Notes under the pieces: model-generated
Told to the model about the DNA's origin: nothing
The model's input: only the letters and a program-made list of their open reading frames with translations
Databases searched by the model: none
Shown here: piece after piece, positions 1 through 45,406 of the stretch
Numbering within the stretch: position 1 is the stretch's first letter
Layout: every line of letters begins with the position of its first letter
Assembly (NCBI GenBank): GCA_028015205.1
Contig: CM051516.1
Coordinates: 56,858,230 to 56,922,229, forward strand
From: Mytilisepta virgata
Taxonomy: Eukaryota > Mollusca > Bivalvia > Mytilida > Mytilidae
Length of the DNA stretch: 64,000 nt
Direction: 5' to 3'
Position numbers and translations under genes: made by a program

Positions 1-601
1 TCCCCTTGTAAACCAACTTCATCCACACTTTCTTGATCATTTGCAATTGTTTGTACCTGAGTAATTATAAGTCCTCCAGCGCCTGTTTCTTGTTCCTGAT
101 TTATAATTTCACTAACAACTGTTTCATCTTCTACTCCGGAAGCTTGCTGTACATTTTCTTTTTCTTCAGTAGTTTCCATGGAGATATCTGCCATATTTAT
201 TTGTTCTCCATGGTCTTCCTTTTCTTCAGCAGCAACATTATCACCATCTGCCATTTCTACATCTTTTGCAACTTCTTCATTTTCCATTGTTATTTCTTCA
301 GATTCATCATTTGTTTTCTCTATTTCAAAATTTTCCATTGCAGTTTCATCTAATGCTTCAAAATCCTGAACCATTTCAACATTTGACTCATTTTCAGTTT
401 CCATAGTGGAGGAATCACCTGTTTCTGGTTCCCCTTCCATATCAGTGTTCAAAAGATTATCATCCTGTTCTCCATTTGTACTTTCTGCTGGCTCTGTAAC
501 TTGGGCAATTTCCATACCTTCGTCTTTTCTTTCAGTTACATCACATCTGTCCTGTATTTCTTCAATACCATCAACCTTGTTTTCTGTTTCTTCACCAACT
601 C
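1..601 (-). CDS. Acidic protein gene, exon 5 (runs off window)
   Basis: Minus strand: acceptor TTTTTCATAG ends at 602. The frame is then open for 600 bp to the window edge, reading GVGEETENKVDG and continuing Glu/Met/Asn-rich with many short ME-type repeats (for example MENFE, MENEE, METE, METT). The same phase-1 entry as exons 3 and 4 supports membership of this gene. Confidence 0.6.
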
Positions 602-13560: not shown

Positions 13561-13892
13561 AAAGGAATAAAAAATCCGACTACGTTTCTCAGCTTATCCG
13601 ATATTCAAGAGCGTACGTGAGTTAGGGACAAGATCAAAAGTTCAATGTAGGATAAAAAACTTAATTCGAATAGTTTGGGGTGGGGGGTAAAAATCGCTGC
13701 AAGTTTTGTTATGCGATATCGATTTTCGGATTGAAAAATACGGATTCAAGTGATGTCCAAGTCAATATACAGAACAAACATACATTGTTCAGGAAAAACA
13801 GGATCCATGATACAAAAAGTATACTCTCAAAGCATATGCCCATATTGGTCAATCAATTTTTCCCAAATTAAGTTAAGGGGGGGGGGGGGGCA

Positions 13893-14590
13893 GTGACCGG
13901 AACCGGAAGTAATTTTTGCGCGCATGCGCAACCGGAAGTAGTGGATTTTCCCGCCATTTCTTTACGGAAGTGACGCAAGTCACGTGGTAGGACCCGGATG
14001 TGTGTTCTGCGCATGCGTAGGAGGAACCGGAAGTACCCGGAAGTGATTTGCGCGCATGCGCAACCGGAAGTGATGGATTTTCCCGACATTTCTTTACGGA
14101 AGTGACGTAAGTCACAGACTCGGACCCGGATGTGTGGTCTGCGCATGTTCAGGCGGAACCGGAAGCACCAGGAAGTGGTTTGCGCGCATGCGCAACCGGA
14201 AGTAGTGGATTTCCCCATGATTTGATTACGGAAGTGACGTCAGTCACTTACCCGGAAGTTCCATGCTTGACCAGAACTCAGATTGAATTATCTCCCTTTT
14301 CCCGCATTTCTCGGTCGTCTCTAGATCTTTCATCGGTCTGATACTCTCACTGATATGTCGAAGTCCGAGAGTATACGAAGTACACTATTGGATTATCTCC
14401 CCTTATCCCGCTCTTTTCATCTGCGGGTGATGTTTTCTGTGAGGACCAAAGGTAGGATTGGATTATCTCCCCTTATCCCGCTCTTTTCATTTGGGGGTAT
14501 TTTCTGTGAGGACCAAAGGTAGGATTGGATTATGTCCTCTTACCTCCAAGTGATGCTGTCACCATTAGATCAATGGAGGGGTGTCCTTAG
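13893..14590 (+). promoter_or_regulatory. Left outer block dense in ETS, NRF1 and CRE sites
   Basis: Repeated CCGGAAGT (ETS/GABP type), GCGCATGCGCA (NRF1 type) and TGACGTCA/TGACGTAAG (CREB/ATF type) sites occur in two to three imperfect copies of a unit of about 130 bp. A tandem pair of about 75 bp follows (GGATTATCTCCCCTTATCCC, from 14,391 and 14,460). Near 14,590 are two direct CTTAGCAAC(C/G) repeats, resembling RFX half-sites. The block faces inward towards the array. The ORFs inside it are by-products of the repeated GC-rich units. Confidence 0.6.
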
Positions 14591-14635
14591 CAACCGCCTT
14601 AGCAACGGCGGTCCATTTCTATGATGCACTTCGTT

Positions 14636-17322
14636 TCTCTTGTTTTGCTCCATCCCGCTCCTCGCTGCTCTTCTCTTGCTCCGTGCTGCTCATCGCTGCT
14701 CTTCTCTTGCTCATCGCTGCTCATCACTGCTCATTGCTGCTCATCTCTTGCTCATCACTGCTCTTCTCTTGCTCCGTGCTGTTTTTCTCTTGCTCTTTGT
14801 TGCTCATCGCTGCTCATTGCTGCTTTTCTCTTGCTCATCGCTGCTCAGCACTGTTTTTCTCTTGGTTTTTTGTTGCTCGTCGCTGTTTTTCTCTTGGTTT
14901 TTGTAGCTCATCGCTGTTTTTCTCGTTCTCATCGCTGTTTTTCTCTTGCTCTTTGCTGCTTATCGCTGTTTTTCTCGTGCCCTTTGCAGCTCATCGCTGT
15001 TTTTCTCGTGCTCATCGCTGTTTTTCTCTTGTTCTTTGCTGCTCATCGCTGTTTTTCTCTTGCTCTTTACTGCTCAGCACTGTTTTTCTCTTGCTCTTTA
15101 CTGCTTATCGCTGTTTTTCTCTTGCTCTTTACTGCTCATCGCTGTTTTTCTCTTGCTCTTTGTTGCTCATCGCTGTTTTTCTCTTGTTCTTTACTGCTCA
15201 GCACTGTTTTTCTCTTCTTCTTTACTGCTCAGCACTGTTTTTCTCTTGGTTTTTGCAGCTCATCGCTTTTTTTCTCGTGCTCATCGCTGTTTTTCTCTTG
15301 TTCTTTGCTTCTCATCGCTGTTTTTCTCGTGCCCTTTGCAGCTCATCGCTGTTTTTCTCGTGCTCATCGCTGTTTTTCTCTTGCTTTTTACTGCTTATCG
15401 CTGTTTTTCTCTTGATCTTTACTGCTCATCGCTGTTTTTCTCTTGTTCTTTGTTGCTCATCGCTGTTTTTCTCTTGATCTTTACTGCTCATCGCTGTTTT
15501 TCTCTTGTTCTTTGTTGCTCATCGCTGTTTTTCTCTTGTTCTTTGTTGCTCATCGCTGTTTTTCTCTTGCTCTTTGCTGCTTATCGCTGTTTTTCTCGTG
15601 CCCTTTGTAGCTCATCGCTGTTTTTCTCGTGCTCATCGCTGTTTTTCTCTTGTTCTTTGCTTCTCATCGCTGTTTTTCTTTTGCTCTTTGCTTCTCATCG
15701 CTGTTTTTCTCGTGCCCTTTGCAGCTCATCTCTGATTTTCTCGTGCTCATCGCTGTTTTTCTCTTGTTCTTTACTGCTCATCACTGTTTTTCTCTTGTTC
15801 TTTACTGCTCATCGCTGTTTTTCTCGTGCTCATCGCAGTTTTTCTCTTGTTCTTTACTGCTTATGGCTGTTTTTCTCTCGCTCTTTGTTGATCATCACTG
15901 TTTTTCTCGTACTCTTTGCTGCTCATCGCTGTTTTTCTCTTGTTCTTTGTTGCTCATCACTGTTTTTCTCGTGCTCATCGCTGTTTTTCTCTTGTTCTTT
16001 ACTGCTTATGGCTGTTTTTCTCTCGCTCTTTGTTGATCATCACTGTTTTTCTCGTACTCTTTGCTGCTCATCGCTGTTTTTCTCTTGTTCTTTGTTGCTC
16101 ATCACTGTTTTTCTCGTGCTCATCGCTGTTTTTCTCTTGTTCTTTACGTCTCATCGCTGTTTTTCTCTTGCTCGTTACTGCTTATCGCTGTTTTTCTCTT
16201 GGTTTTTGTAGCTCATCTCTGATTTTCTCGTGATCATCGCTGTTTTTCTCTTGCTCTTTACTGCTCATCGCTGTTTTTCTCTTGCTCTTTACTGCTCATC
16301 GCTGTTTTCTCTTGCTCTTTACTGCTCATCGCTGTTTTTCTCGTGCTCATCGCAGTTTTTCTCTTGGTTTTTGTAGCTCGTCGTTATTTTTCTCGTGCTG
16401 TTTACTGCTCGTCGCTGTTTTTTCTCTTGTTCTTTGTTGCTCATCACTGTTTTTCTCTTGCTCTTTACTGCTCATCACTGTTTTTCTCTTGTTCTTTACT
16501 GCTTATCGCTGTTTTTCTCTTGGTTTTTGTAGCTCATCGCTGTTTGTCTCTTGCTCTTTACTGCTCATCGCTGTTTTTCTCTTGCTCTATGCTTCTCATC
16601 GCTGTTTTTCTCTTGTTCTTTACTGCTCATCACTGTTTTTCTCTTGTTCTTTACTGGTCATCGCTGTTTTTCTCTTGCTCTTTACTGCTCATCGCTGTTT
16701 TTCTCTTGCTCTATGCTTCTCATCGCTGTTTTTCTCTTGTTCTTTGTTGCTCATCACTGTTTTTCTCTTGCTCTTTACTGCTCATCAATGTTTTTCGCTT
16801 GTTCTTTACTGGTCATCGCTGTTTTTCTCTCGTTCTTTACTGCTCATCGCTGTTTTTCTCTTGCTCTTTACTGCTTATGGCTGTTTTTCTCTCGCTCTTT
16901 GTTGCTCATCACTGTTTTTCTCTTGTCCTTTGTTGTTCATCGCTACTCCTTACCTTACTCGCGTGCTTATTTCGTTTTTTGGGGCTACTTGTCTCTGTTT
17001 TCGCTGCCACTACTGCTCCTGCTGCTTTTTGCTGTTCGTTATCGCTGCTCTTCTCTTGCTCATCGCTGTTTTTTCTCTTGCTCATCGCTGATCCTTTCTT
17101 GTTCTTTGCTGCTCATCCCTACTCAGGGCCTTACTCGCGTGCTCATTTCGCTCCTGCTGCTTGTTGCTGTTCGTCATCGCTGCTCTTCTCTTGCTCATCA
17201 CTGCTCTTCTCTTGCTCTTTGCTGTTCATCGCTACTCATGATCTTACTCGCGTGCTCATTTCAGTTTTTTGGTGCTATTTGTCACTTTTAATCGCTGCTG
17301 CTGCTACTGCTGAAGGAATGTA
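14636..17322 (+). repeat. Left minisatellite array (about 31 bp unit)
   Basis: Tandem units of about 31 bp share the core GCTCATCGCTGTTTTTCTC and variable CTTG/CTCTTTACT ends. Shorter units of about 21 bp (CTCGTGCTCATCGCTG type) are interspersed. Because 31 is not a multiple of 3, each frame cycles through the unit. All three plus-strand frames stay open for hundreds of codons, while the minus strand has stops (GCAGTAAAG). The proximal end (about 16,930-17,300) has three copies of a different motif with CTTACTCGCGTGCT. I treat it as a minisatellite, not as proteins. Confidence 0.85.
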
Positions 17323-17453
17323 GTTTACTGCTGATGATCGGAAGGCCACTCGGTACTCATGTTGTCGGTTTGATTGGTAGATCAAGACTGATCGATGTGA
17401 TTGTATACTGGGATATTTATCGACGACAAACACAAATGAAACAGTTTCATATT

Positions 17454-17975
17454 TTATTTTACAAAATCTACATCAGTCAATGTTTTAAGTTCTGGTTCTT
17501 TCTCTTCAAACAAAGGTATGATCTTCTTCAGTTCTTTCCATTCGAAGGTGTCCAAGCCGATTCCTCTCTTTGTTGGACGATAGGTCCAGTATCCCCGGGG
17601 TATAAAGTGCTTTCTTATCCAAATAGTGGGGTATGGGGATTTGACGGTGACGAATACATTGTCCCCAATGTGATATCTCCAGTCGACTAGTTCTTTATCC
17701 TGTACTCTACCGATCAAATCATCCACCACTTCTGTGGTACTGCACAACATTTTCCACTGCATTAACGACAGGCTGACTCCGGTCTTGGTGGGCACCGTTT
17801 CACTTTCCCAAAATCTGAGATCTACTCTTTTACTGCCATTCCATTCTGTCAGCTCTGCATAACGTCCTCCACCCAATGGTACTTTCAAAGGAATGTCGGA
17901 ATCTGTCATGGCGTCTTGGACGATATCGCTCTCGGTCTGGTCTTTGGTTTTCTTTTCTTTACGAGACATATACAT
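17454..17975 (-). CDS. Tandem PC4 (p15)-like ssDNA-binding protein, left copy
   Basis: A 173-residue protein with two consecutive PC4/Sub1-like modules. The first (about residues 33-83) has GGGRYAELTEWNG and TKTGVSLSLMQWKML; the second (about 98-150) has YHIGDNVFVTV and TKRGIGLDTFEWKELKKI. PC4 proteins bind single-stranded DNA and act in transcription and repair; the pattern beta-strands, then K-G-[IV]-x-L-x-x-x-[QE]-W, is the family hallmark. The N-terminus is basic and Ser/Asp-rich, as in PC4. The start was chosen at MYMSRKEKK because a TATA-like TATATATATA lies about 25 bp upstream on the coding strand; a longer ORF extends upstream without an obvious promoter. Mirror copy at 22,427-22,948. 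Confidence 0.7.
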   Translation of the reverse strand: MYMSRKEKKTKDQTESDIVQDAMTDSDIPLKVPLGGGRYAELTEWNGSKRVDLRFWESETVPTKTGVSLSLMQWKMLCSTTEVVDDLIGRVQDKELVDWRYHIGDNVFVTVKSPYPTIWIRKHFIPRGYWTYRPTKRGIGLDTFEWKELKKIIPLFEEKEPELKTLTDVDFVK

Positions 17976-18177
17976 GATTCTTCTAGCTGGTCTATTTATA
18001 TATATATATTTGTAAAGATGGACTGGATTGGTTCTTATATTATGAAACTCGAAACATGATTGGCTATCTTTCCGACATCGTGATTGGTTAAATTCTCCCG
18101 TTCCGATTGGTCGAAAATCTGGCATTTTCATTGGTCAATTCCAACCGTTTCGATAGATCAACACGATGATACATTGT

Positions 18178-18318
18178 CTAAATATGCGGCGCCCAATCCG
18201 GAAACTGTTCACAATAGGTACGAGTAAACACCGACAATACGACCAGTCTTCCTTGGTTCACCACACCGTCTTCGAACATGGCAGAAACGATTCTCTCGTA
18301 TACTCGTAGGGGGTCCAT
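18178..18318 (-). CDS. Mini-ORF with Bcl-2 BH1-like segment, left copy
   Basis: A 46-residue ORF. Its segment VYERIVSAMFEDG followed by VNQGRLVVLSVF matches the alpha4-alpha5/BH1 pattern of Bcl-2-family proteins ([FY]E-x-[IV]V-x-x-x-F-x-DG-V-x-N-x-GR-[IL]V-x-L). The usual Trp after Asn is Gln here. BH3, BH2 and a tail anchor are not seen in this ORF, which stops where helix 6 would begin. TATAAAAG lies 34 bp upstream (18,352-18,359). It may be a truncated or minimal survival-protein mimic, or a decayed gene. Identity rests on one motif. Confidence 0.45.
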   Translation of the reverse strand: MDPLRVYERIVSAMFEDGVVNQGRLVVLSVFTRTYCEQFPDWAPHI

Positions 18319-18405
18319 CGTACGAATGACTTCTCTGACTATCTTCACTTCCTTTTATACATTTATGACATGAGACTACTCTGCATTGACAAACTTTGTA
18401 ACTGT

Positions 18406-18702
18406 CTACATATATACATGTATATATAGTGTTGCCAGAAGATCCCGATACCGGGGTTTTGTATCTGAGGCACTGGCAGTCCACCCGGACAGAGGAAAAT
18501 ACCGACAATCGTGTTCAGGATGAACGAGATTACATCCGCCACCTTTCCTGATATGGTTCGCCACACATTCAACCAACGTGTCGTTTGGATTTATACTGAG
18601 AAACGCAGAGACCGGAGAACTAAGATACTTCCATTCCAGGACGGGGACGAATGTTCTCTGTCTCGATGATGTTAGATGGACATCAAAGATGGCTGCACCC
18701 AT
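18406..18702 (-). CDS. Unknown 98-residue ORF, left copy
   Basis: Identical to the mirror ORF 21,701-21,997. No recognised domain. Features are an N-terminal MGAAIFDVHLTSS, a CNLVHPEHDC segment (Cys/His spacing reminiscent of but not matching a zinc finger) and a Tyr-rich end. An overlapping frame (start 18,572) encodes a hydrophobic stretch near SFILNTIVGIFLCPGG, so which frame is used is uncertain. A stray copy of the minisatellite unit lies directly upstream (about 18,703-18,745). Confidence 0.35.
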   Translation of the reverse strand: MGAAIFDVHLTSSRQRTFVPVLEWKYLSSPVSAFLSINPNDTLVECVANHIRKGGGCNLVHPEHDCRYFPLSGWTASASDTKPRYRDLLATLYIHVYM

Positions 18703-18812
18703 TCTGTTGCTTTTTGCTGCTCATCGCTGTTTTTCTCTTGCTCTGCTAATGATGACCTTACCTCATTTCAGTTTTGGGGCAACTTGTCGCTGTTTTCGCC
18801 GCTGTTGCTAGT
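18703..18812. repeat. Isolated minisatellite-like unit (left arm gene block)
   Basis: A single copy of the array core (GCTCATCGCTGTTTTTCTC) is followed by CTTACCTCATTTCAGTTTTG and a GCCGCTGTTGCT end. The same order of unit and proximal motif is found at the inner edge of the array (17,220-17,310). The mirror copy is at 21,591-21,700. Confidence 0.7.
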
Positions 18813-19225
18813 GGTGGTCGATTGTCGTTAGTCAAAGATTGGATCTGTGCGAGAGCACCCTTAGATCCGGGTTATTTAAAAGTCCACTCTGCATTTATCC
18901 AGGCTTGTGACTGGCTATCATAAGATAGGCTGCATTAATCCTGCTCAATTTTTTAAGGGCACTCTGCATTTGTCCAGGCTTGTGACTGGCTATATATATG
19001 TATAAACATATATAGGCTGCATTACCCTCCTTCCCTTTTTTTGTTATATTTTTTTCTGTTTTTCTTTGTAATATGTTCCAATTCCTCCGTCACATAGAGT
19101 CATTGCTGTCTTCAGCTGGAGGTGGGTCGTAGTCGTTCAATACACGGTTAAGCAGATATTTTCGTTTTTCTACGGCCTAATCCCATGATTCTTTTGATTC
19201 GTAGTCTTCCTATTCTCTCCAGCGT
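18813..19225. other. Intergenic region of left arm with hairpins and direct repeats
   Basis: Mirror of 21,178-21,590: two imperfect direct repeats (CAGGCTTGTGACTGGCTAT) each next to a short AT-rich hairpin. No ORF supported. Confidence 0.55.
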
Positions 19226-19657
19226 TTAGCTGTTTTTCTTGTTCTCTCTATGTACGGGGTCTTTATTTATGTCTTGATGCCAGGACACCAGTCCGAGGTA
19301 ATGCTTTCGTATTTCGTCTCTGTATGAGTCAAACATGTCTCTATATGCTGCCAAGCGTGCCTTGTCTTCTTCCATTCCGGCTTCCACTACTTCGTTTACT
19401 GTCTGTGAGTATTCCGATTGATGTACTTGAAATGTTATGTTCAAAACGACTTCCCATAGGGACTGTTCGCAAAGCTCTTCGGAGTCTTCGTTGGATCCAT
19501 GGTCACTACTTTGTTCCGATTCATCGTTATCGGCTTCTGTGGTGGTGTCTGAAGCTGAATCACTATAGTCTGTTGAATCCTCTTCAATACCATGTGCATT
19601 CTTTTTGTGTCGCACTAGGTTAAAGTTTTGCTTGGATTGGTATCCACAGGTATACAT
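19226..19657 (-). CDS. Acidic protein with degenerate C2H2 finger, left copy
   Basis: 143 residues. The N-terminus MYTCGYQSKQNFNLVRHKKNAH looks like a C2H2 finger (NLVRH-x4-H), but only one Cys is present: the two residues and Cys expected after the first Cys are missing. A Ser/Asp/Glu-rich linker follows (about residues 25-62). The C-terminal helical domain has EAGMEEDKARLAAYRDMFDSY and HYLGLVSWHQDINKDPVHR. From memory, multi-copy invertebrate proteins share this finger, acidic linker and DPVHR-ending helix layout. An in-frame stop directly precedes the ATG, so the start is firm. Mirror copy at 20,746-21,177. Confidence 0.55.
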   Translation of the reverse strand: MYTCGYQSKQNFNLVRHKKNAHGIEEDSTDYSDSASDTTTEADNDESEQSSDHGSNEDSEELCEQSLWEVVLNITFQVHQSEYSQTVNEVVEAGMEEDKARLAAYRDMFDSYRDEIRKHYLGLVSWHQDINKDPVHRENKKNS

Positions 19658-19711
19658 TTAAGACGTCTTTATTTCCTGGTAGTCGATAGCAGAATGAGTT
19701 CCGGTCGTCCT

Positions 19712-20116
19712 TCAAGTGTTTATATTAGATACACGTTCCTCAGCGGCTTGTTGATTCATACACAAGCGTTTGGCAAAGTATTCGTTTCGACATTGTTGCA
19801 GTTCAGATTTCACTTTTCTGATGAGGTCTCTTTTAAGTCTTTTCCACTCGTTGTCAATCCTTCTACATCCCTTGCAGATATTCATGTTTTTGTAGAAGTC
19901 CGCAAAGCTCTTGTTCGTTTGACACTTTTTACATTTTTTGTTTGGATCCACTTTGTTGGGTCCTCCACTTGTGTTATCCAGCCGTTTGGTTCTCTTCACT
20001 TTGGTTAGAAGTAATTTCCTTTTCCTTTGTGGTTTTGCTTTGGTGTTAGAAAGATCCACAGGTACTAAATATCTAGCAGGAACCACTAAATCAACGAGAG
20101 GCGTTTTCGATGCCAT
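19712..20116 (-). CDS. Zinc-ribbon protein, left (complete) copy
   Basis: 134 residues with a basic N-terminal part (QRKRKLLLTKVKRTKR). A CKKCQTNKSFADFY segment followed by NICKGCRR forms a four-Cys CxxC/CxxC zinc ribbon (about residues 62-85). The C-terminal half is a basic, probably helical segment ending EERVSNINT. This fold is common in viral and transposon DNA-binding proteins and in HNH-type nucleases, but no HNH residues are seen. Only this copy has the natural start: the right copy loses the first part at the arm boundary. Its 5' end and upstream region occupy the unique central spacer. Confidence 0.6.
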   Translation of the reverse strand: MASKTPLVDLVVPARYLVPVDLSNTKAKPQRKRKLLLTKVKRTKRLDNTSGGPNKVDPNKKCKKCQTNKSFADFYKNMNICKGCRRIDNEWKRLKRDLIRKVKSELQQCRNEYFAKRLCMNQQAAEERVSNINT

Positions 20117-20397
20117 TGATACGTGTGTGTTGTTTGACGGTCTTCAAACAACTGACGAAATTAAACAAAACCTCTGATTATATTTTCGTTAAAAGCTTTT
20201 CATTGGTGTCATAGAGACGAAGATTACCCCACACAGTTCGCTGTTCGTTGTTGCTATTGCTGCTGAGGAGGTGAAGGTGGGATTCTCACTGTTTCGTTAT
20301 AAGTCACCTCTTAGTCTCGTTGATGTTTCGATGGATACAAAAGATGGCTGCGTTCATGTGACGCGGACCTGAAAGAGAACACCCTTATGAAACAGAA
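20006..20397. other. Unique central spacer of the palindrome
   Basis: 392 bp not shared between arms. Its left part holds the first codons and upstream region of the left zinc-ribbon gene, with a TATAATC-like motif near 20,177-20,183 on the minus strand. The right part runs up to the breakpoint at about 20,397, where the truncated right copy begins. No independent ORF is convincing. Confidence 0.65.
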
Positions 20398-20691
20398 ACC
20401 AAAGTGAAGAGAACCAAACGGCTGGATAACACAAGTGGAGGACCCAACAAAGTGGATCCAAACAAGAAATGTAAAAAGTGTCAAACGAACAAGAGCTTTG
20501 CGGACTTCTACAAAAACATGAATATCTGCAAGGGATGTAGAAGGATTGACAACGAGTGGAAAAGACTTAAAAGAGACCTCATCAGAAAAGTGAAATCTGA
20601 ACTGCAACAATGTCGAAACGAATACTTTGCCAAACGCTTGTGTATGAATCAACAAGCCGCTGAGGAACGTGTATCTAATATAAACACTTGA
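20398..20691 (+). pseudogene. Zinc-ribbon protein, right copy (5' truncated)
   Basis: Identical to the C-terminal two thirds of the left copy, including both CxxC pairs. Homology ends at about 20,398, and the upstream frame hits a stop at 20,359-20,361. There is no ATG in frame before the ribbon, so this copy has lost its start at the inversion breakpoint unless it is read from an unannotated fusion or a non-ATG codon. Confidence 0.6.
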
Positions 20692-20745
20692 AGGACGACC
20701 GGAACTCATTCTGCTATCGACTACCAGGAAATAAAGACGTCTTAA

Positions 20746-21177
20746 ATGTATACCTGTGGATACCAATCCAAGCAAAACTTTAACCTAGTGCGACACAAAA
20801 AGAATGCACATGGTATTGAAGAGGATTCAACAGACTATAGTGATTCAGCTTCAGACACCACCACAGAAGCCGATAACGATGAATCGGAACAAAGTAGTGA
20901 CCATGGATCCAACGAAGACTCCGAAGAGCTTTGCGAACAGTCCCTATGGGAAGTCGTTTTGAACATAACATTTCAAGTACATCAATCGGAATACTCACAG
21001 ACAGTAAACGAAGTAGTGGAAGCCGGAATGGAAGAAGACAAGGCACGCTTGGCAGCATATAGAGACATGTTTGACTCATACAGAGACGAAATACGAAAGC
21101 ATTACCTCGGACTGGTGTCCTGGCATCAAGACATAAATAAAGACCCCGTACATAGAGAGAACAAGAAAAACAGCTAA
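20746..21177 (+). CDS. Acidic protein with degenerate C2H2 finger, right copy
   Basis: Mirror of 19,226-19,657, same product. TAA immediately precedes the ATG in frame. An AATAAA (20,730-20,735) and a GACGTC lie in the 54-bp gap after the zinc-ribbon stop, so the two genes are tightly packed on one strand. Confidence 0.55.
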   Translation: MYTCGYQSKQNFNLVRHKKNAHGIEEDSTDYSDSASDTTTEADNDESEQSSDHGSNEDSEELCEQSLWEVVLNITFQVHQSEYSQTVNEVVEAGMEEDKARLAAYRDMFDSYRDEIRKHYLGLVSWHQDINKDPVHRENKKNS

Positions 21178-21590
21178 ACGCTGGAGAGAATAGGAAGACT
21201 ACGAATCAAAAGAATCATGGGATTAGGCCGTAGAAAAACGAAAATATCTGCTTAACCGTGTATTGAACGACTACGACCCACCTCCAGCTGAAGACAGCAA
21301 TGACTCTATGTGACGGAGGAATTGGAACATATTACAAAGAAAAACAGAAAAAAATATAACAAAAAAAGGGAAGGAGGGTAATGCAGCCTATATATGTTTA
21401 TACATATATATAGCCAGTCACAAGCCTGGACAAATGCAGAGTGCCCTTAAAAAATTGAGCAGGATTAATGCAGCCTATCTTATGATAGCCAGTCACAAGC
21501 CTGGATAAATGCAGAGTGGACTTTTAAATAACCCGGATCTAAGGGTGCTCTCGCACAGATCCAATCTTTGACTAACGACAATCGACCACC
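21178..21590. other. Intergenic region with paired hairpins, right arm
   Basis: Two direct repeats (ATGCAGCCTAT ... GCCAGTCACAAGCCTGGA ... AAATGCAGAGTG) at about 21,380-21,450 and 21,468-21,525. Each contains an AT-rich hairpin: CTATATATG/CATATATATAG, and CTATC/GATAG. They may be regulatory or replication-related; nothing coding is seen. Confidence 0.5.
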
Positions 21591-21700
21591 ACTAGCAACA
21601 GCGGCGAAAACAGCGACAAGTTGCCCCAAAACTGAAATGAGGTAAGGTCATCATTAGCAGAGCAAGAGAAAAACAGCGATGAGCAGCAAAAAGCAACAGA
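21591..21700. repeat. Isolated minisatellite-like unit (right arm gene block)
   Basis: Mirror of 18,703-18,812; ends a few bases before the ATG of the unknown ORF at 21,701. Confidence 0.65.
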
Positions 21701-21997
21701 ATGGGTGCAGCCATCTTTGATGTCCATCTAACATCATCGAGACAGAGAACATTCGTCCCCGTCCTGGAATGGAAGTATCTTAGTTCTCCGGTCTCTGCGT
21801 TTCTCAGTATAAATCCAAACGACACGTTGGTTGAATGTGTGGCGAACCATATCAGGAAAGGTGGCGGATGTAATCTCGTTCATCCTGAACACGATTGTCG
21901 GTATTTTCCTCTGTCCGGGTGGACTGCCAGTGCCTCAGATACAAAACCCCGGTATCGGGATCTTCTGGCAACACTATATATACATGTATATATGTAG
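21701..21997 (+). CDS. Unknown 98-residue ORF, right copy
   Basis: Same product as 18,406-18,702. Here the overlapping frame starting at 21,831 extends to 22,193, because an A-run near 22,003 is one base shorter than in the left arm. That makes the overlapping frame a likely non-coding shadow. No family recognised. Confidence 0.35.
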   Translation: MGAAIFDVHLTSSRQRTFVPVLEWKYLSSPVSAFLSINPNDTLVECVANHIRKGGGCNLVHPEHDCRYFPLSGWTASASDTKPRYRDLLATLYIHVYM

Positions 21998-22042
21998 ACA
22001 GTTACAAGTTTGTCAATGCAGAGTAGTCTCATGTCATAAATG

Positions 22043-22050
22043 TATAAAAG
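22043..22050 (+). promoter_or_regulatory. TATA box of the BH1-like ORF
   Basis: TATAAAAG, 34 bp upstream of the ATG at 22,084, predicting a very short 5' leader. Mirror at 18,352-18,359. Confidence 0.55.
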
Positions 22051-22083
22051 GAAGTGAAGATAGTCAGAGAAGTCATTCGTACG

Positions 22084-22224
22084 ATGGACCCCCTACGAGT
22101 ATACGAGAGAATCGTTTCTGCCATGTTCGAAGACGGTGTGGTGAACCAAGGAAGACTGGTCGTATTGTCGGTGTTTACTCGTACCTATTGTGAACAGTTT
22201 CCGGATTGGGCGCCGCATATTTAG
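22084..22224 (+). CDS. Mini-ORF with Bcl-2 BH1-like segment, right copy
   Basis: Mirror of 18,178-18,318, with the same 46 residues and same TAG stop. After the stop the frame reopens at ATG 22,228 for a short basic stretch with no recognised motif. No strong splice donor is seen inside the ORF. Confidence 0.45.
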   Translation: MDPLRVYERIVSAMFEDGVVNQGRLVVLSVFTRTYCEQFPDWAPHI

Positions 22225-22394
22225 ACAATGTATCATCGTGTGGATCTATCGAAACGGTTGGAATTGACCAATGAAAATGCCAGATTTTCGACCAATCGGA
22301 ACGGGAGAATTTAACCAATCACGATGTCGGAAAGATAGCCAATCATGTTTCGAGTTTCATAATATAAGAACAAATCCAGTCCATCTTTACAAAT

Positions 22395-22409
22395 ATATAT
22401 ATATAAATA
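22395..22409 (+). promoter_or_regulatory. TATA-like element of the PC4-like gene
   Basis: TATATATATATAAATAG sits about 20-30 bp upstream of ATG 22,427, supporting this start rather than the longer ORF from 22,271. Several ATTGG/CCAAT motifs (AACCAATCACG, AGCCAATCATG) lie 70-140 bp upstream, a plausible CCAAT-type promoter. Confidence 0.5.
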
Positions 22410-22426
22410 GACCAGCTAGAAGAATC

Positions 22427-22948
22427 ATGTATATGTCTCGTAAAGAAAAGAAAACCAAAGACCAGACCGAGAGCGATATCGTCCAAGACGCCATGACAGA
22501 TTCCGATATTCCTTTGAAAGTACCATTGGGTGGAGGACGTTATGCAGAGCTGACAGAATGGAATGGCAGTAAAAGAGTAGATCTCAGATTTTGGGAAAGT
22601 GAAACGGTGCCCACCAAGACCGGAGTCAGCCTGTCGTTAATGCAGTGGAAAATGTTGTGCAGTACCACAGAAGTGGTGGATGATTTGATCGGTAGAGTAC
22701 AGGATAAAGAACTAGTCGACTGGAGATATCACATTGGGGACAATGTATTCGTCACCGTCAAATCCCCATACCCCACTATTTGGATAAGAAAGCACTTTAT
22801 ACCCCGGGGATACTGGACCTATCGTCCAACAAAGAGAGGAATCGGCTTGGACACCTTCGAATGGAAAGAACTGAAGAAGATCATACCTTTGTTTGAAGAG
22901 AAAGAACCAGAACTTAAAACATTGACTGATGTAGATTTTGTAAAATAA
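22427..22948 (+). CDS. Tandem PC4 (p15)-like ssDNA-binding protein, right copy
   Basis: Mirror of 17,454-17,975 with the same 173-residue product. It is the last gene before the array. The stop is immediately followed by AATAAAATATGAAAC, where the AATAAA overlaps the end region and could be its polyadenylation signal. Confidence 0.7.
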   Translation: MYMSRKEKKTKDQTESDIVQDAMTDSDIPLKVPLGGGRYAELTEWNGSKRVDLRFWESETVPTKTGVSLSLMQWKMLCSTTEVVDDLIGRVQDKELVDWRYHIGDNVFVTVKSPYPTIWIRKHFIPRGYWTYRPTKRGIGLDTFEWKELKKIIPLFEEKEPELKTLTDVDFVK

Positions 22949-23079
22949 AATATGAAACTGTTTCATTTGTGTTTGTCGTCGATAAATATCCCAGTATACA
23001 ATCACATCGATCAGTCTTGATCTACCAATCAAACCGACAACATGAGTACCGAGTGGCCTTCCGATCATCAGCAGTAAAC

Positions 23080-26050
23080 TACATTCCTTCAGCAGTAGCA
23101 GCAGCAGCGATTAAAAGTGACAAATAGCACCAAAAAACTGAAATGAGCACGCGAGTAAGATCATGAGTAGCGATGAACAGCAAAGAGCAAGAGAAGAGCA
23201 GCGAAGAGCAAGAGAAGAGCAGTGATGAGCAAGAGAAGAGCAGCGATGACGAACAGCGATGACGAACAGCAACAAGCAGCAGGAGCGAAATGAGCACGCG
23301 AGTAAGGCCCTGAGTAGGGATGAGCAGCAAAGAACAAGAAAGGATCAGCGATGAGCAAGAGAAAAAACAGCGATGAGCAAAAGAAGAGCAGCGATAACGA
23401 ACAGCAAAAAGCAGCAGGAGCAGTAGTGGCAGCGAAAACAGAGACAAGTAGCCCCAAAAAACGAAATAAGCACGCGAGTAAGGTAAGGAGTAGCGATGAA
23501 CAACAAAGGACAAGAGAAAAACAGTGATGAGCAACAAAGAGCGAGAGAAAAACAGCCATAAGCAGTAAAGAGCAAGAGAAAAACAGCGATGAGCAGTAAA
23601 GAACGAGAGAAAAACAGCGATGACCAGTAAAGAACAAGCGAAAAACATTGATGAGCAGTAAAGAGCAAGAGAAAAACAGTGATGAGCAACAAAGAACAAG
23701 AGAAAAACAGCGATGAGAAGCATAGAGCAAGAGAAAAACAGCGATGAGCAGTAAAGAGCAAGAGAAAAACAGCGATGACCAGTAAAGAACAAGAGAAAAA
23801 CAGTGATGAGCAGTAAAGAACAAGAGAAAAACAGCGATGAGAAGCATAGAGCAAGAGAAAAACAGCGATGAGCAATAAAGAGCAAGAGACAAACAGCGAT
23901 GAGCTACAAAAACCAAGAGAAAAACAGCGATAAGCAGTAAAGAACAAGAGAAAAACAGTGATGAGCAGTAAAGAGCAAGAGAAAAACAGTGATGAGCAAA
24001 AAAGAACAAGAGAAAAAACAGCGACGAGCAGTAAACAGCACGAGAAAAACAGTGACGAGCAACAAAAACCAAGAGAAAAACAGCGATGAGCAACAAAGAG
24101 CGAGAGAAAAACAGCGATAAGCAGTAAAGAGCAAGAGACAAACAGCGATGAGCTACAAAAACCAAGAGAAAAACAGCGATAAGCAGTAAATAACAAGAGA
24201 AAAACAGTGATGAGCAGTAAAGAGCAAGAGAAAAACAGTGATGAGCAACAAAGAACAAGAGAAAAAACAGCGACGAGCAGTAAACAGCACGAGAAAAATA
24301 GCGACGAGCTACAAAAACCAAGAGAAAAACTGCGATGAGCACGAGAAAAACAGCGATGAGCAGTAAAGAGCAAGAGAAAAACAGCGATGAGACGTAAAGA
24401 ACAAGAGAAAAACAGCGATGAGCACGAGAAAAACAGTGATGAGCAACAAAGAACAAGAGAAAAACGGCGATGAGCAGCAAAGAGTACGAGAAAAACAGTG
24501 ATGATCAACAAAGAGCGAGAGAAAAACAGCCATAAGCAGTAAAGAACAAGAGAAAAACAGCGATGAGCACGATAAAAACAGTGATGAGCAACAAAGAACA
24601 AGAGAAAAACAGCGATGAGCAGCAAAGAGTACGAGAAAAACAGTGATGATCAACAAAGAGCGAGAGAAAAACAGCCATAAGCAGTAAATAACAAGAGAAA
24701 AACAGCGATGAGCACGAGAAAAACAGTGATGAGCAACAAAGAACAAGAGAAAAACAGCGATGAGCAGCAAAGAGTACGAGAAAAACAGTGATGATCAACA
24801 AAGAGCGAGAGAAAAACAGCCATAAGCAGTAAAGAACAAGAGAAAAACTGCGATGAGCACGAGAAAAACAGCGATGAGCAGTAAAGAACAAGAGAAAAAC
24901 AGTGATGAGCAGTAAAGAACAAGAGAAAAACAGCGATGAGCACGAGAAAATTAGAGATGAGCTGCAAAGGGCACGAGAAAAACAGCGATGAGAAGCAAAG
25001 AGCAAAAGAAAAACAGCGATGAGAAGCAAAGAACAAGAGAAAAACAGCGATGAGCACGAGAAAAACAGCGATGAGCTACAAAGGGCACGAGAAAAACAGC
25101 GATAAGCAGCAAAGAGCAAGAGAAAAACAGCGATGAGCAACAAAGAACAAGAGAAAAACAGCGATGAGCAACAAAGAACAAGAGAAAAACAGCGATGAGC
25201 AGTAAAGATCAAGAGAAAAACAGCGATAAGCAACAAAGAACAAGAGAAAAACAGCGATGAGCAGTAAAGATCAAGAGAAAAACAGCGATAAGCAGTAAAA
25301 AGCAAGAGAAAAACAGCGATGAGCACGAGAAAAACAGCGATGAGCTGCAAAGGGCACGAGAAAAACAGCGATGAGAAGCAAAGAACAAGAGAAAAACAGC
25401 GATGAGCACGAGAAAAAAGCGATGAGCTGCAAAAACCAAGAGAAAAACAGTGCTGAGCAGTAAAGAAGAAGAGAAAAACAGTGCTGAGCAGTAAAGAACA
25501 AGAGAAAAACAGCGATGAGCAACAAAGAGCAAGAGAAAAACAGCGATGAGCAGTAAAGAGCAAGAGAAAAACAGCGATAAGCAGTAAAGAGCAAGAGAAA
25601 AACAGTGCTGAGCAGTAAAGAGCAAGAGAAAAACAGCGATGAGCAGCAAAGAACAAGAGAAAAACAGCGATGAGCACGAGAAAAACAGCGATGAGCTGCA
25701 AAGGGCACGAGAAAAACAGCGATAAGCAGCAAAGAGCAAGAGAAAAACAGCGATGAGAACGAGAAAAACAGCGATGAGCTACAAAAACCAAGAGAAAAAC
25801 AGCGACGAGCAACAAAAAACCAAGAGAAAAACAGTGCTGAGCAGCGATGAGCAAGAGAAAAGCAGCAATGAGCAGCGATGAGCAACAAAGAGCAAGAGAA
25901 AAACAGCACGGAGCAAGAGAAGAGCAGTGATGAGCAAGAGATGAGCAGCAATGAGCAGTGATGAGCAGCGATGAGCAAGAGAAGAGCAGCGATGAGCAGC
26001 ACGGAGCAAGAGAAGAGCAGCGAGGAGCGGGATGGAGCAAAACAAGAGAA
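23080..26050 (-). repeat. Right minisatellite array (about 31 bp unit)
   Basis: Reverse-complement counterpart of 14,636-17,322, but 283 bp longer, so the arrays have gained or lost units since duplication. On the plus strand the unit is purine-rich (GAGAAAAACAGCGATGAGCA core). On the minus strand all three frames are open, the longest 519 codons. Confidence 0.85.
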
Positions 26051-26094
26051 ACGAAGTGCATCATAGAAATGGACCGCCGTTGCTAAGGCGGTTG

Positions 26095-26845
26095 CTAAGG
26101 ACACCCCTCCATTGATCTAATGGTGACAGCATCACTTGGAGGTAAGAGGACATAATCCAATCCTACCTTTGGTCCTCACAGAAAATACCCCCAAATGAAA
26201 AGAGCGGGATAAGGGGAGATAATCCAATCCTACCTTTGGTCCTCACAGAAAACATCACCCGCAGATGAAAAGAGCGGGATAAGGGGAGATAATCCAATAG
26301 TGTACTTCGTATACTCTCGGACTTCGACATATCAGTGAGAGTATCAGACCGATGAAAGATCTAGAGACGACCGAGAAATGCGGGAAAAGGGAGATAATTC
26401 AATCTGAGTTCTGGTCAAGCATGGAACTTCCGGGTAAGTGACTGACGTCACTTCCGTAATCAAATCATGGGGAAATCCACTACTTCCGGTTGCGCATGCG
26501 CGCAAACCACTTCCTGGTGCTTCCGGTTCCGCCTGAACATGCGCAGACCACACATCCGGGTCCGAGTCTGTGACTTACGTCACTTCCGTAAAGAAATGGC
26601 GGGAAAATCCATCACTTCCGGTTGCGCATGCGCGCAAATCACTTCCGGGTACTTCCGGTTCCTCCTACGCATGCGCAGAACACACATCCGGGTCCTACCA
26701 CGTGACTTGCGTCACTTCCGTAAAGAAATGGCGGGAAAATCCACTACTTCCGGTTGCGCATGCGCGCAAAAATTACTTCCGGTTCCGGTCACGTGACTTC
26801 CGGTTCCGGTTACGTCACTTCCGGTGACGTCATTTCCGGCTCCTC
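26095..26845 (-). promoter_or_regulatory. Right outer block dense in ETS, NRF1 and CRE sites
   Basis: Mirror of 13,893-14,590, extending about 50 bp further out with extra CACTTCCGGT and TGACGTCA sites (26,793-26,840) that the left arm lacks. The left arm therefore appears truncated at a G-tract (13,877-13,890). Confidence 0.6.
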
Positions 26846-27660
26846 CTCGCTCCTCCTCAAATCCTAACCGAAAACCGCATACATACTACTAACATGATTA
26901 AGAATTTTTACGGTTGTCATTACGAATTGATTGACCGTTACATCATAGTTGTATAGTTTTCAGTGTTTATATTTGTTGTGCTTGTGGTTGTTCGTTTGTC
27001 TTCCCCGTTTTTGTCTATCTTATGGATTGCGTTTTTTTTTTTTTTTTTTTTTTTTTTTGCTCCTTATGTATATTTGTTCTCTTTAACAATTGATAAATTT
27101 GACATTTTTTGTTCCCAGATCAGCGCAAAAGGGGAGGTGCACATCTACAATGTGGTTAGAATACACAAACTATAGGTACCATTAAATCCTGATATATGTG
27201 TCTAAAAAAGACTAAGTTCACCAAATGATAAATTTGACATTTTTCTCAAATCAACCCAAAAATGGAGGTGCACATCTTCAATGTGTTCAGAAAAAGTGTG
27301 CAATATTTCAGAAGTGCAAGATTTATAGTGGAGTTTCAGAATACACAAACTAGGTACCCTTCCTATCGAATGCAACTAAAAATGACTAAGTTCAACAAAT
27401 GATAAATTTTACACTTTTTTCTCAAATCACTCCAAAAGATCAGTGTGTTCAGAATATGTGTGCATAATGTCAGAATTCCCGGGTTTATGGTGTTGGGCGG
27501 AGTTTCGGATTAACCTATTACGTGACGGACTGACGTACGGACGGAGTGACCCGCGCCTCCAAAGTTATTGCGAGACAAGCTATTCAAGAAGTCGTATCAA
27601 TCAAATGTGGATATTAAAGAACCCCAAAGACGTAAAGGATATTTAACTATCTCGGTCCAC
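26846..27660. repeat. Diverged tandem repeat and T-tract
   Basis: A 24-base T tract is near 27,033. Three diverged units of about 190 bp then share AAATGATAAATTTGACA, GGAGGTGCACATCT and AATACACAAACTA blocks. They end near a GACGGACTGACGTACGGACGGA stretch, the usual right end of such bivalve repeats. No coding potential. Confidence 0.6.
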
Positions 27661-29859: not shown

Positions 29860-30327
29860 ATGCAGAATACTACACCTTCAAAAAATACTACCCCGCCACA
29901 AAATAAAATCAAAAATGAAGGCAGTGCATCAAAAGACCAACCTAAAGATAACATAAAGAAAGAACCCCAGCAACAGGGACAAAATCAGCAGCAAGGCCAA
30001 GGAAATAGAAATCATCCACATCATGGAGGTAGAGGACGTGGGAAACCGAACCGAGGTGGAAGAGGTGGTCATCAAGGTGGTGGACAAAATAGATTTAACC
30101 AGCAGGGACAAGGGGCACAACAGTATCAGTCAGGTTATGACCAAGCTTTTATACCAGTCCAAGAAGGACCAAAAGAAAAAAAGAAGTTCACTGGAAGATG
30201 CCGTCTTTTTGTAGGAAACATAACACCAGACACATCTGAAGAAGAATTCAAAGATCTGTTCAAGCCCTATGGAGAAATAAACGAATGCTTTGTAAATGGT
30301 GCAAAAGGTTTTGGATTTATTAGATTG
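29860..30327 (+). CDS. NONO: DBHS exon 1: Q/G/R-rich N-terminus and first part of RRM1
   Basis: 156 codons ending at FGFIRL, then donor GTAAGA, phase 0. RGG-type repeats ([15 protein letters not shown]) precede RRM1, whose RNP2 is CRLFVGNI and RNP1 [10 protein letters not shown]. Confidence 0.93.
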
Positions 30328-33300
30328 GTAAGAAAATTGGGTGTTGAATTGGTAACAAGTCAAGTCGCCCCCAAGACAAGTTGCCCACCTTCTAATCTCA
30401 AGATGTATGTTAATATATTTGTTGAAAAGCTCTCTCAAGACAAGTAGCCCAATCTCTAATCTAAAGATATATGTTAAGATATTGGTTTAAAAGCTGTAAA
30501 AGTGTACTTATAATATGATATAAAGGAATATTTACGCATCTAAAAATGGTATTTCTTAAAAACGTGTTTTCAAGTCAATAAATCGCTAATTTTTCAGATC
30601 ATTTTGTGGTTATTGTGTGTTTGTTCGTGATAAGGCAAAATGAAGAGAAATTCGTATTCAAGCTTAAATACATTTTATTCAAGAGATATATAATTCAGTG
30701 GCAAATAATTTACAACAAAGACTTACATCTTCACTGGCCGCCATAAATCTTCCCACACTCCTTCAGTAGCTGGTTGGGGATGATCTGGTTGTCCTGAGCA
30801 TAAATCAGTATTCATTCCTGGAAATACCTGTAAATACACAAACAAAACAAAGTTGTTATAATTTCAGGGAATAATAAAAGTATATATTTAAATATATTTC
30901 CATGATAAGACCGATACAAACTCAAATACTTTCAGAAGAACTCGAGTCAAAACGCCCCCACTTTTAAAGATGAAATAACATCCCCATTTTCAGGCCCTGC
31001 CAAAACGCCCCCATTTTTAACCTTTGTCAAAATGCCCCCACTTTTAAAAATGAAATAAAGCTCCCATTTTCAGGCCTTTGTCAAAACTACCTCATTTCCA
31101 AACATATACCAAAACGCCCCCACTTTCAAAAATGACACTACATCCCCATTTTCAGTCTGTGCCAAAATGCCCTCATTTATAACCTTGTCAGAACGATTTT
31201 TTATTGAAGTTCGTTAATTGGTGTTATATAAGTTATCCACTGTAAGTTGCAATTGCAAATACACAGTTGTATCTTGGTGTCACGTACGTGTGCAAATATG
31301 GACTTCATTTGTTGCTGTTAATCACTTGTGCAAATGTGGATTTCATTTGTTGCTGTTAATGTGCCTGAATAATATGTTTCTTCTGGTAATTTTGTATGTT
31401 CATCAAGAAAAGACTGTATGAAATAAGCAAGACAAAATTGTTTACTTACATTTTTTATTAGCACTAAAACAACAATTAACAAATTACTTTTTCAATGGCA
31501 TTTTTAGGACTACTGTTTATGTATATATTTTGCATACTTCACCTGTGGAAAATGGGGGCCTTTTTTGTATTGACTTAATTTCATCTGAAAAATGGGGGCG
31601 TTTTGGTATTGACTTAATTTCATCCAAAAAATGGGGGCGGTTTGGTATTGACTTAATTTCATCCGAAAAATTGGGGCGTTTTGACCTGTTTCCTTTCAGA
31701 ACATTTATAAATTTAATTTTGAACTACAAATGACTACCTGTGTCACAAGTTCTGTGCTGCTTTCTTCTACAAGTAATACATGTTAGCACTTCTTGAAGTG
31801 GTCTAAGGTCTTCGTCGCAGGGAGTAAGGTCAGCCATTGTAAGGTTGGATGATCGAAAATGACAAATCTTCAGTATTTATGCAGATTTTTGGCTGTGACA
31901 CTGTTCAAGTGAATACCAATAGCTCATTTCCTTTTTTATCATTATAAATTGTCCAAGCTAATTAAAAGTGATAAGCCAAGCTTTCCTCATTAACATAGCC
32001 AGCCAAATAATTTATTGAATTTAATTAAGTAATCAGCTTTAACTGTCATCATCGACAATTGTAAGTGAAAGCCTTAATGAGGGGGCGACTTGTCTTGATG
32101 ATGAAGTGGGCGACTTGTCTTAATGACGTGGGCGAATTGTCTTATGAGGGGCGACTTGACTCGCATTCGTTGAATTTTAGATACTTTTCTTCCATGTGCA
32201 TCATACTGCATGTGCTACCAACACATGTTTAGACTAAATTTACCTTTTCTTTATTGTTGTTATTTCACCCACAAATCTACCTTAACCTGTTAACACCAGA
32301 GAAAATTAATGAGTTATTTCCGTTTTACACCATGTTGTAATTATGATAGGCTTCAATAGTTTGCCTGTGACATTTTGAAAAGCTGCAACATCAGTATTCA
32401 GGCACGAAAACACCAATCATACTATTGATATCGTTATAGCTTTTATTAATCTTAATGAAGTTCATATAATTTACCACTGATGTAGACTGAAAGTGAAAGT
32501 CTTTGAAGCAGGTCATATTCTAATATATATTGTAGTGTGCAGCTTTCGATGAATTAAAAATTTTCAGTATTATGGGCTGCACGCCTTACATCATAGTCAA
32601 TATTAATGCCACTCTTTTAAATCTCAGTAGAGGAAATATAAAAAAAGCGAAATGCTTCAATATTTTGGTCCAGTGTAAAATAAGGTCAAAATGAAATATA
32701 ATTGTGTGTTTCATGTTTCCCAACCGACCTCATTTTTGGCCGCAATCTGAAACATTTTATTGACATCGATTGAAAAAAGAACAGAATTTATCGTGGTTTT
32801 TTTCTGGAAAAGGTTATTTAGACTTGACTTTGTTTAGTTGGGATTTTACACCGTTTTCAGCACATTTTGGCTATTTCGCAGCGGCCAGTTTTTATTGGTG
32901 GAGGAAGATGGAGAGAAACACCAACCTTCGGTAGGAAAATTGGCAATCCTTGTAAATTTAGATCGTAGTCGAACACACCCCTCCACAGGTGATATTTGAA
33001 CTCACAACCCCAGTGTTGACAGGCTAGTGATCATTAGTAGTCATGACGAACTACATAGACCACTTGGCCACCGAGTCCCCCGACTAGACTTTGAATCACT
33101 CTTTAAAATGTTTTCTATTACTGCACTGCGCGAACACTATTTTCAGGAAATTGGTTGGAGTTAGCGTCATAATTTTTTCTCATTAACAAAGCCCTGGATA
33201 TCCCCTGCTGTCTACATGTACTTTATATGCATTTAAAAAGTCGACACACATGATTAGATCTACATGCGTTCCAGGGACGGATGAGTTTGAAGGATGAAGC

Positions 33301-45300: not shown

Positions 45301-45354
45301 TTTTCTGACCTTAAAAATAGTTTTCCGGTGAAACAGTCAGATCTTTATAGTTTT

Positions 45355-45406
<52 letters not shown>

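What the first reader, a model, noticed from the sequence alone, without database searches (positions are those of the whole stretch)
13893..26792. A 13 kb near-perfect palindrome carrying duplicated virus-like genes
Seen: two reverse-complement arms of about 6 kb, each with the same five compact genes, TATA-driven promoters, an array and a regulatory block, inserted between unrelated flanks. Inference: an inverted duplication of part of a DNA virus or large DNA transposon, or an element whose native form is palindromic. No capsid, polymerase or integrase gene is present, so it does not match a standard Polinton, adintovirus or herpes-like layout that I can name.
Basis: partly seen in the sequence, partly recalled or inferred. 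Interest (0 to 1): 0.9.

Follow-up and report, generated by a model that had tools for sequence, protein, structure and literature searches.

The report
Palindromic Polinton-like mobile element family
The 13 kb palindrome is one worn copy of a repeated mobile element whose normal inserted form is an almost perfect end-to-end palindrome carrying each of its virus-like genes twice, an unusual body plan that suggests it copies itself through a giant hairpin.

Summary
The palindrome is real: arms 13893-20006 and 20397-26792, 390 nt spacer; the element's right end is 26890. It is neither a one-off duplication nor an assembly fold-back. Searching the window's own genome (1.03 Gb) with its best gene gave 40 scored matches; 32 form 16 outward-facing pairs 4.5-6.1 kb apart, as in the window. 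In 9 of 9 copies with both ends (11 examined), the element ends in 5'-AGTAGTAT and is flanked by a perfect 6-bp target duplication. Four further copies read are 14.1-15.6 kb palindromes; one has 7,330 nt arms that are 100% identical. In 5 of 5 copies tested the inner arms match each other better than those of the other four. The firm gene is a tandem PC4 ssDNA-binding protein whose best viral fold match is an adintovirus MOSUB; a 46-aa frame weakly resembles Bcl-2. No polymerase, integrase or capsid match was found in the frames scanned. Best reading: a non-autonomous Polinton/adintovirus-related element, moved in trans and copied as a self-complementary hairpin. Palindrome, copies and duplications are shown; helper and hairpin cycle are inferred. 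The window copy lost its left end and 1.1 kb of centre.

The parts
13893..20006 (-). left arm of the palindrome, outer end truncated
   Evidence: inverted repeat to 20397-26792
20397..26890 (+). right arm with its terminus ...ATACTACT-3' (26883-26890)
   Evidence: the same terminus with 6-bp duplications in 9 copies
20007..20396 (.). spacer: unpaired continuation of the left arm (start of ORF134 and upstream); its partner and the axis, about 1.1 kb present in copy C1:31.44 Mb (L029 2942-4055), are missing here
22433..22948 (+). tandem PC4 (MOSUB-like) gene, right arm, 171 aa (225 aa from the in-frame ATG at 22271)
   Evidence: Pfam PC4 9.3e-15; fold
17454..17969 (-). tandem PC4 gene, left arm
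22084..22224 (+). ORF46, BH1-like segment of a Bcl-2 relative, right arm; TATAAAAG at 22043
   Evidence: Pfam Bcl-2 7.9e-4, below curated cut-off
18178..18318 (-). ORF46, left arm
21701..21997 (+). ORF98, right arm (coding status doubtful)
18406..18702 (-). ORF98, left arm
20746..21177 (+). ORF143, C2H2-like start (by eye; Pfam E 0.25) and acidic middle, right arm
19226..19657 (-). ORF143, left arm
19712..20116 (-). ORF134, CxxC...CxxC motif, complete; weak endonuclease VII match
   Evidence: PHROG 1035 E 0.0029
20404..20691 (+). ORF134, right copy lacking its N-terminal part
14637..16944 (+). 31-bp array (units of 10/21/31), left arm
23492..26028 (-). 31-bp array, right arm
13915..14247 (+). 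2.5 x 132-bp terminal block rich in CCGGAAGT, GCGCATGCGC and TGACGTCA, left
26438..26770 (+). 2.5 x 132-bp terminal block, right
14387..14542 (+). 2.3 x 67-bp repeat, left
26143..26298 (+). 2.3 x 70-bp repeat, right

Best explanation
This is a copy of a dispersed mobile-element family of about 13-16 kb whose integrated form is a palindrome from end to end. Each arm carries, from outside in, a 5'-AGTAGTAT terminus, enhancer-like 132-bp repeats, a 31-bp array, and small outward-pointing genes led by a tandem PC4 ssDNA-binding protein. Shown: the family, its ends, 6-bp target duplications, and inner arms and termini that match each other better within a copy than between copies. Inferred: it lacks polymerase, integrase and capsid genes and is replicated and integrated in trans by Polinton/adintovirus-type enzymes. 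Displaced single strands fold into a giant hairpin, one arm is copied from or corrected by the other, and so each new insertion begins with two identical arms. The tandem PC4 protein would handle that single-stranded DNA, and the BH1-like peptide may restrain host cell death. The window copy is a worn member with a lost left terminus and a lost central 1.1 kb.
For: Own-genome search: 32 of 40 scored PC4 matches form 16 outward-facing inverted pairs. Terminal-block search: 18 of 40 scored places form 9 inverted pairs 13.3-16.2 kb apart, eight of them new. Perfect 6-bp target duplications in 9 of 9 copies with both ends; 11 copies examined, the other 2 lack one end. The terminal 28 nt are identical left and right in 9 of 9 copies although 8 variants occur among the 9. 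Inner arm halves: within-copy identity exceeds the best between-copy identity in 5 of 5 copies. C10:18.67 Mb: 4158 + 3172 nt of arm at 100% identity. Tandem PC4: Pfam hit in 22 of 22 aligned members, the window plus 21 of 139 relatives; two b4-a halves; best viral fold match MOSUB of Branchiostoma lancelet adintovirus, E 1.2e-5, the only one of 742 matches at E<=0.001. The genome holds 117 protein-primed PolB matches (91 of 461 candidates scored; 0 of 14 control genomes match), so possible helpers exist.
Against: No helper with the same termini was found: flanks of two PolB loci share neither arms nor ends. In the first 540 nt outside PC4 the two arms of a copy are less alike than the best arm of another copy in 8 of 11 copies, tied in 2 and more alike in 1 (gaps counted as differences, and the stretch runs into the array). 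In C7:27.25 Mb the inner-arm excess is slight (0.9976 against 0.9956). That 6 bp and 5'-AG mark Polintons is recalled; the papers searched for it here did not confirm it. The MOSUB match is a fold match at 19% identity. The Bcl-2 match is below Pfam's cut-off, and ORF46, ORF98 and ORF134 show no sign of purifying selection between copies. In C10:18.67 Mb neither arm has the 143-aa frame. Arm identity could also come from later gene conversion.
Confidence: 0.72

Rival explanations
1. A Foldback-type cut-and-paste DNA transposon (in the manner of Galileo or Tetris) whose terminal inverted repeats grew inward until almost nothing unpaired was left; the transposase is not of Polinton type and the genes are captured passengers.
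For: Galileo copies with two extended TIRs and internal tandem repeats show that TIRs can recruit internal sequence (PMC3573991, passages); Tetris is built in a similar way (PMC4079207, passages). The outer arms carry 31-bp arrays.
Against: Duplications are 6 bp in 9 of 9 copies, against 7 bp for Galileo and 8-10 bp for Tetris in those passages. Among 3 distinct intact-length copies the PC4 gene shows 12 amino-acid and 11 silent steps, against about 3.8 to 1 available sites, so it looks maintained rather than captured. No transposase match in the frames scanned.
Confidence: 0.17
2. A satellite or defective virus: the palindrome is the packaged genome of a symmetric recombinant of an adintovirus-like virus, and chromosomal copies are by-products of infection.
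For: Adintovirus-like MOSUB fold; BH1-like peptide; anti-apoptotic genes are reported for most mammal-associated adintoviruses (PMC11071296, passages; see also PMC10812802, passages). Symmetric left-end adenovirus recombinants are recalled from memory.
Against: No virion or packaging gene match in the frames scanned; no relative confirmed in the viral contig collection for PC4, ORF98, ORF143 or ORF134. Genes point outward, unlike the adenovirus left end (recalled).
Confidence: 0.12
3. A single inverted duplication of host or viral DNA, or an assembly fold-back.
For: Arms are nearly identical; a G run abuts the left end.
Against: Fifteen further inverted pairs elsewhere and 9 of 9 target duplications; unrelated flanks at the borders; arm-specific array indels.
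Confidence: 0.03

Closest known systems
Polinton/Maverick elements
   Same: terminal inverted repeats, 6-bp target duplication and 5'-AG ends (these Polinton values are recalled), size around 15 kb; protein-primed PolB genes abound in this genome
   Different: no PolB, integrase or capsid match in the frames scanned; inverted repeats fill nearly the whole element; genes in duplicate
Adintoviruses
   Same: tandem PC4 protein shares the fold of MOSUB proteins of two adintoviruses; a BH1-like peptide recalls their anti-apoptotic genes
   Different: no match to the PolB, Hexon and integrase that define the group (definition: PMC11071296, passages); palindromic
Galileo copies with two extended TIRs / Foldback elements
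   Same: long inverted repeats with internal tandem arrays and a reduced middle (PMC3573991, passages)
   Different: 7-bp duplications, P-type transposase, TIRs of about 0.9-1.3 kb in the passages seen; here arms of 6-7.8 kb carry genes and duplications are 6 bp
KolobokP (composite-like transposons found in molluscs and other phyla)
   Same: element with an unusual repeated architecture in bivalves, mussels included (PMC9587614, passages)
   Different: long terminal direct repeats; Kolobok duplications are TTAA

Membership tests
Polinton/Maverick | encodes protein-primed PolB | tested here: not met
   no such Pfam hit in the gene-sized ORFs and ten further ORFs of the element (the low-complexity array frames were not scanned); the PolB match nearest to any listed copy is about 33 kb away, compared by eye
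Polinton/Maverick | encodes rve integrase | tested here: not met
   no such hit in the same frames
Polinton/Maverick | 6-bp target duplication and 5'-AG ends (values recalled) | tested here: met
   9 of 9 copies with both ends, 11 examined
Polinton/Maverick | same termini as an autonomous Polinton of this genome | tested here: inconclusive
   flanks of two PolB loci show no shared ends or arms; the other PolB matches were not examined
Adintovirus | PolB with OTU-like domain, Hexon, chromodomain integrase | tested here: not met
   no such Pfam hit in the frames scanned; definition from passages of PMC11071296
Adintovirus | MOSUB (PC4-like) gene, present in at least two | tested here: met
   Foldseek E 1.2e-5 and 5.4e-3; a fold match, 19% and 14% identity
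Foldback/Galileo | 7-bp (Galileo) or 8-10 bp (Tetris) duplication | tested here: not met
   6 bp in 9 of 9; values
Foldback/Galileo | long TIRs with internal tandem repeats | tested here: met
KolobokP | TTAA duplication and long terminal direct repeats | tested here: not met
   repeats are inverted
Bcl-2 family (ORF46) | Pfam Bcl-2 above cut-off, other BH motifs present | tested here: inconclusive
   20.4 bits against cut-off 31.4; profile 31-65 of 100 only
PC4 family | Pfam PC4 above cut-off and PC4 fold | tested here: met

The most novel reading that the evidence does not exclude
A class of animal mobile elements that live as obligate palindromes: a single-stranded, fully self-complementary 15 kb hairpin is the replicating form, both arms are renewed from one template at every round, and each gene is kept in two identical copies that cannot diverge while the element is active. 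A self-encoded tandem PC4 protein would manage the hairpin, and helper Polinton/adintovirus enzymes would be borrowed in trans.
Probability: 0.35. Interest if true: 0.88.

Novelty: new variant of a known kind. Interest (0 to 1): 0.78.

Why it matters
Long perfect inverted repeats are generally held to be unstable (recalled), yet this genome shows at least 24 loci with this layout (16, eight more), and four gene-bearing palindromes of 14.1-15.6 kb were read. If palindromy is remade at each insertion, it is a built-in copy-correction device and a direct window on how Polinton-type DNA replicates. It also links tandem PC4 genes (139 relatives; PC4 is named among DNA-binding gene families of the Manila clam in PMC5499747, one passage) to mobile DNA.

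Tried and rejected
Assembly artefact and one-off duplication: rejected. A target duplication at the window's own borders: shared 6-mers there are about what chance gives, and the left end is lost. Viral contigs: no relatives confirmed for PC4, ORF98, ORF143 or ORF134, and no exact copy of an array or terminal motif. Phage and plasmid records: no match. Prokaryote genomes: none confirmed. Protein relatives of ORF143 and ORF134: none. Single-sequence fold of ORF134: mainly one long helix, pTM 0.39, not informative. KolobokP was considered because of its nuclease and rejected on its TTAA duplication and direct repeats. A BH2-like stretch downstream of ORF46 lies in another frame and was not used. 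First 540 nt outside PC4: within-copy identity is below the best other copy in 8 of 11, tied in 2, above in 1; the inner halves and termini are the basis of my claim. Outer arms: mismatches 0-0.69% in 8 of 9 copies, with gaps of up to 1,278 nt; C10:38.98 Mb gives 7.48% in an alignment with a 1,200-nt gap. Selection counts: (ungapped matches) gave PC4 12 amino-acid and 8 silent changes, ORF46 5 and 1, ORF134 2 and 1, ORF143 1 and 1, and an antisense control frame 0 and 1, too few to serve as a control. One search gave PC4 12 and 11, ORF46 9 and 3, ORF98 39 and 9, ORF134 19 and 4. Pfam control: 10 other ORFs gave no match at E<=0.1. Papers: ten searches in all. One search (at least 3 of adintovirus, Bcl, Polinton, PC4) found no paper. 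Searches (15 papers, all listed; 15 of 23 listed) showed no title describing such an element; most of those papers were not opened. The main adintovirus paper is not held.
Full report
Observation. The window holds two inverted arms, 13893-20006 and 20397-26792, with a 390 nt spacer. Outside the array region the arms differ by five substitutions and one 1-nt indel; in the array there are 249-nt and 34-nt indels, 1-nt indels and clustered mismatches. The two substitutions that fall in the 171-aa PC4 frame and in ORF134 are silent. Left and right flanks share scattered repeats but nothing at the borders. The window is C9:56858230-56922229 of an unnamed 1.03 Gb genome in 109 contigs.

ORF46 matches the BH1 region of Bcl-2 (Pfam E 7.9e-4, 20.4 bits, cut-off 31.4). 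The 60 solved-structure matches shown, of 120, are Bcl-2 relatives, but at E 0.067 and worse. Ten other ORFs of the element gave no Pfam match at E<=0.1. ORF46 shows no selection signal (9 amino-acid to 3 silent steps), nor do ORF134 (19 to 4) and ORF98 (39 to 9). ORF134 has a CxxC pair and a weak endonuclease VII match (E 0.0029). In the stretch without PC4, ORF143 exceeds the longest ORF in 969 of 1000 shuffles, and 98 aa is reached in 262 of 1000. The 143-aa frame is present in the window, C1:31.44, C7:27.25 and C8:23.32 Mb but not in C10:18.67 Mb. Neither ORF143 nor ORF134 has protein relatives at E<=0.001. So 'five virus-like genes' rests on one firm gene and several weaker ones.

Regulatory parts. 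Each arm ends in 2.5 copies of a 132-bp repeat. In 13860-26860 there are 16 CCGGAAGT, 12 GCGCATGCGC and 6 TGACGTCA matches against 1, 0 and 0 in the other 51 kb; both strands are counted, so each site of the two palindromic motifs counts twice (the names ETS, NRF1 and CRE are recalled). TATAAA boxes lie 41 nt before ORF46 and 31 nt before the PC4 start at 22433. The genes listed all point outward.

Copies in the genome. With the PC4 gene as query, 601 candidates were seen and 40 scored, 93-100% identical; 32 of the 40 form 16 pairs, minus copy first, plus copy second, 4.5-6.1 kb apart, and 8 are unpaired within the scored list. With the terminal block as query, 2,847 candidates were seen and 40 scored; 18 of the 40 form nine pairs spanning 13.3-16.2 kb, one already known (C7:44.70 Mb), and 22 are unpaired within the scored list.

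Ends and target duplications. I fetched the outer flanks of ten pairs; with the window that makes 11 copies. Nine have both ends...ATACTACT-3', and all nine are flanked by a perfect 6-bp duplication: ACCTTC, GATATT, TGTCGG, AATATT, TACGTA, TATATA, TATATA, ACCATA, AATGTA. Two copies lack one end: the window (left) and C13:97.96 Mb (right). The last 28 nt are the same left and right in 9 of 9 copies, yet 8 variants occur among the 9.

Palindromy of other copies. Four more centres were read. C10:18.67 Mb: inner arms 1-3172 and 3578-6749, 100% identical, 405 nt between; with 4158 nt of identical outer arm the arms reach 7,330 nt and the element about 15.07 kb. C1:31.44 Mb and C8:23.32 Mb align with their own reverse complement over their whole centres at 98.9%. 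C7:27.25 Mb has 3.08-3.09 kb inner arms at 99.35%, and both of its PC4 frames stop early (152 and 150 aa against 225). Against C1:31.44 the window lacks L029 2942-4055, about 1.1 kb; the window's spacer is the continuation of the left arm. Inner halves (about 2.5 kb), within-copy identity against best other copy: window 0.9984/0.9864, C1:31.44 1.0000/0.9956, C10:18.67 1.0000/0.9791, C7:27.25 0.9976/0.9956, C8:23.32 0.9980/0.9838. Against this, in the first 540 nt outside PC4, which run into the array, the within-copy value is below the best other copy in 8 of 11, tied in 2 and above in 1. Outer arms have 0-0.69% mismatches in 8 of 9 copies, with array gaps, and 7.48% in the ninth.

Mechanism. 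Shown: a repeated palindromic element, inserted with 6-bp duplications, whose termini and inner arms share copy-specific variants. Inferred: both arms derive from one template just before or during each insertion, most simply because a displaced single strand of a palindrome is one long hairpin. Inferred: enzymes come from Polinton-type elements. PolB matches are plentiful (117 matches; 91 of 461 candidates scored; 0 of 14 control genomes), but the flanks of two PolB loci share neither arms nor ends, and the PolB match nearest to a listed copy is about 33 kb away (C11:83.58 against 83.62 Mb, compared by eye). The 6-bp and 5'-AG values for Polintons are recalled; three papers searched for such values did not give them (PMC6431247, PMC4046053, PMC4028283). 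Later gene conversion between arms could also explain the identity.

Known relatives. Adintoviruses are defined by PolB, Hexon and a chromodomain integrase (PMC11071296, passages), none matched in the frames scanned, so this is not filed as one. Galileo copies with two extended TIRs are the nearest structural parallel I found (PMC3573991, passages), but with 7-bp duplications and much shorter arms. I regard this as a new variant: a gene-bearing, end-to-end palindromic, probably non-autonomous relative of Polinton-type elements.

Noticed in passing
window 41824-46446: DIRS-like retroelement: reverse transcriptase, RNase H, Dam-like and tyrosine recombinase frames (the family name is recalled)
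   Followed up: partly
window 4979-5193, about 32856-33063, about 59644-59873: tRNA-Ser-like SINE: ARAGORN tRNA call at 5111-5199 inside a repeat with two further copies in the window
   Followed up: no
window 29860-30444 and 33440-33802: RRM frames, perhaps of an SFPQ/NONO-like gene (name recalled), begin about 3 kb to the right of the element
   Followed up: no
L029:3046-3559 and L030:3360-3443: Degenerate CCCTAA/TTAGGG telomere-like repeats near the palindrome axis, read in some copies as an Asn-Pro-rich frame of 80-95 aa; no exact unit in the window copy
   Followed up: partly
L029 centre: A short perfect stem (11 bp, 16-nt loop, by eye) lies near the axis of copy C1:31.44 Mb
   Followed up: no
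C13:85199877-85205027 and C13:85232155-85237305 of the own genome: Two inverted pairs 32 kb apart with identical scores, probably a larger duplication
   Followed up: no
own genome, e.g. C14:24660155, C13:101019771, C9:18343703: 117 protein-primed PolB matches, a number of them in frames of about 1,390-1,445 aa without stops: a large Polinton-like population
   Followed up: partly
window 14637-17330 and 23076-26060: Array units of 10, 21 and 31 bp keep a 10.35-bp register over 2.7-3 kb
   Followed up: partly
L031: Both arms of C7:27.25 Mb carry a PC4 frame that stops early (152 and 150 aa), so damage may be shared between arms
   Followed up: no
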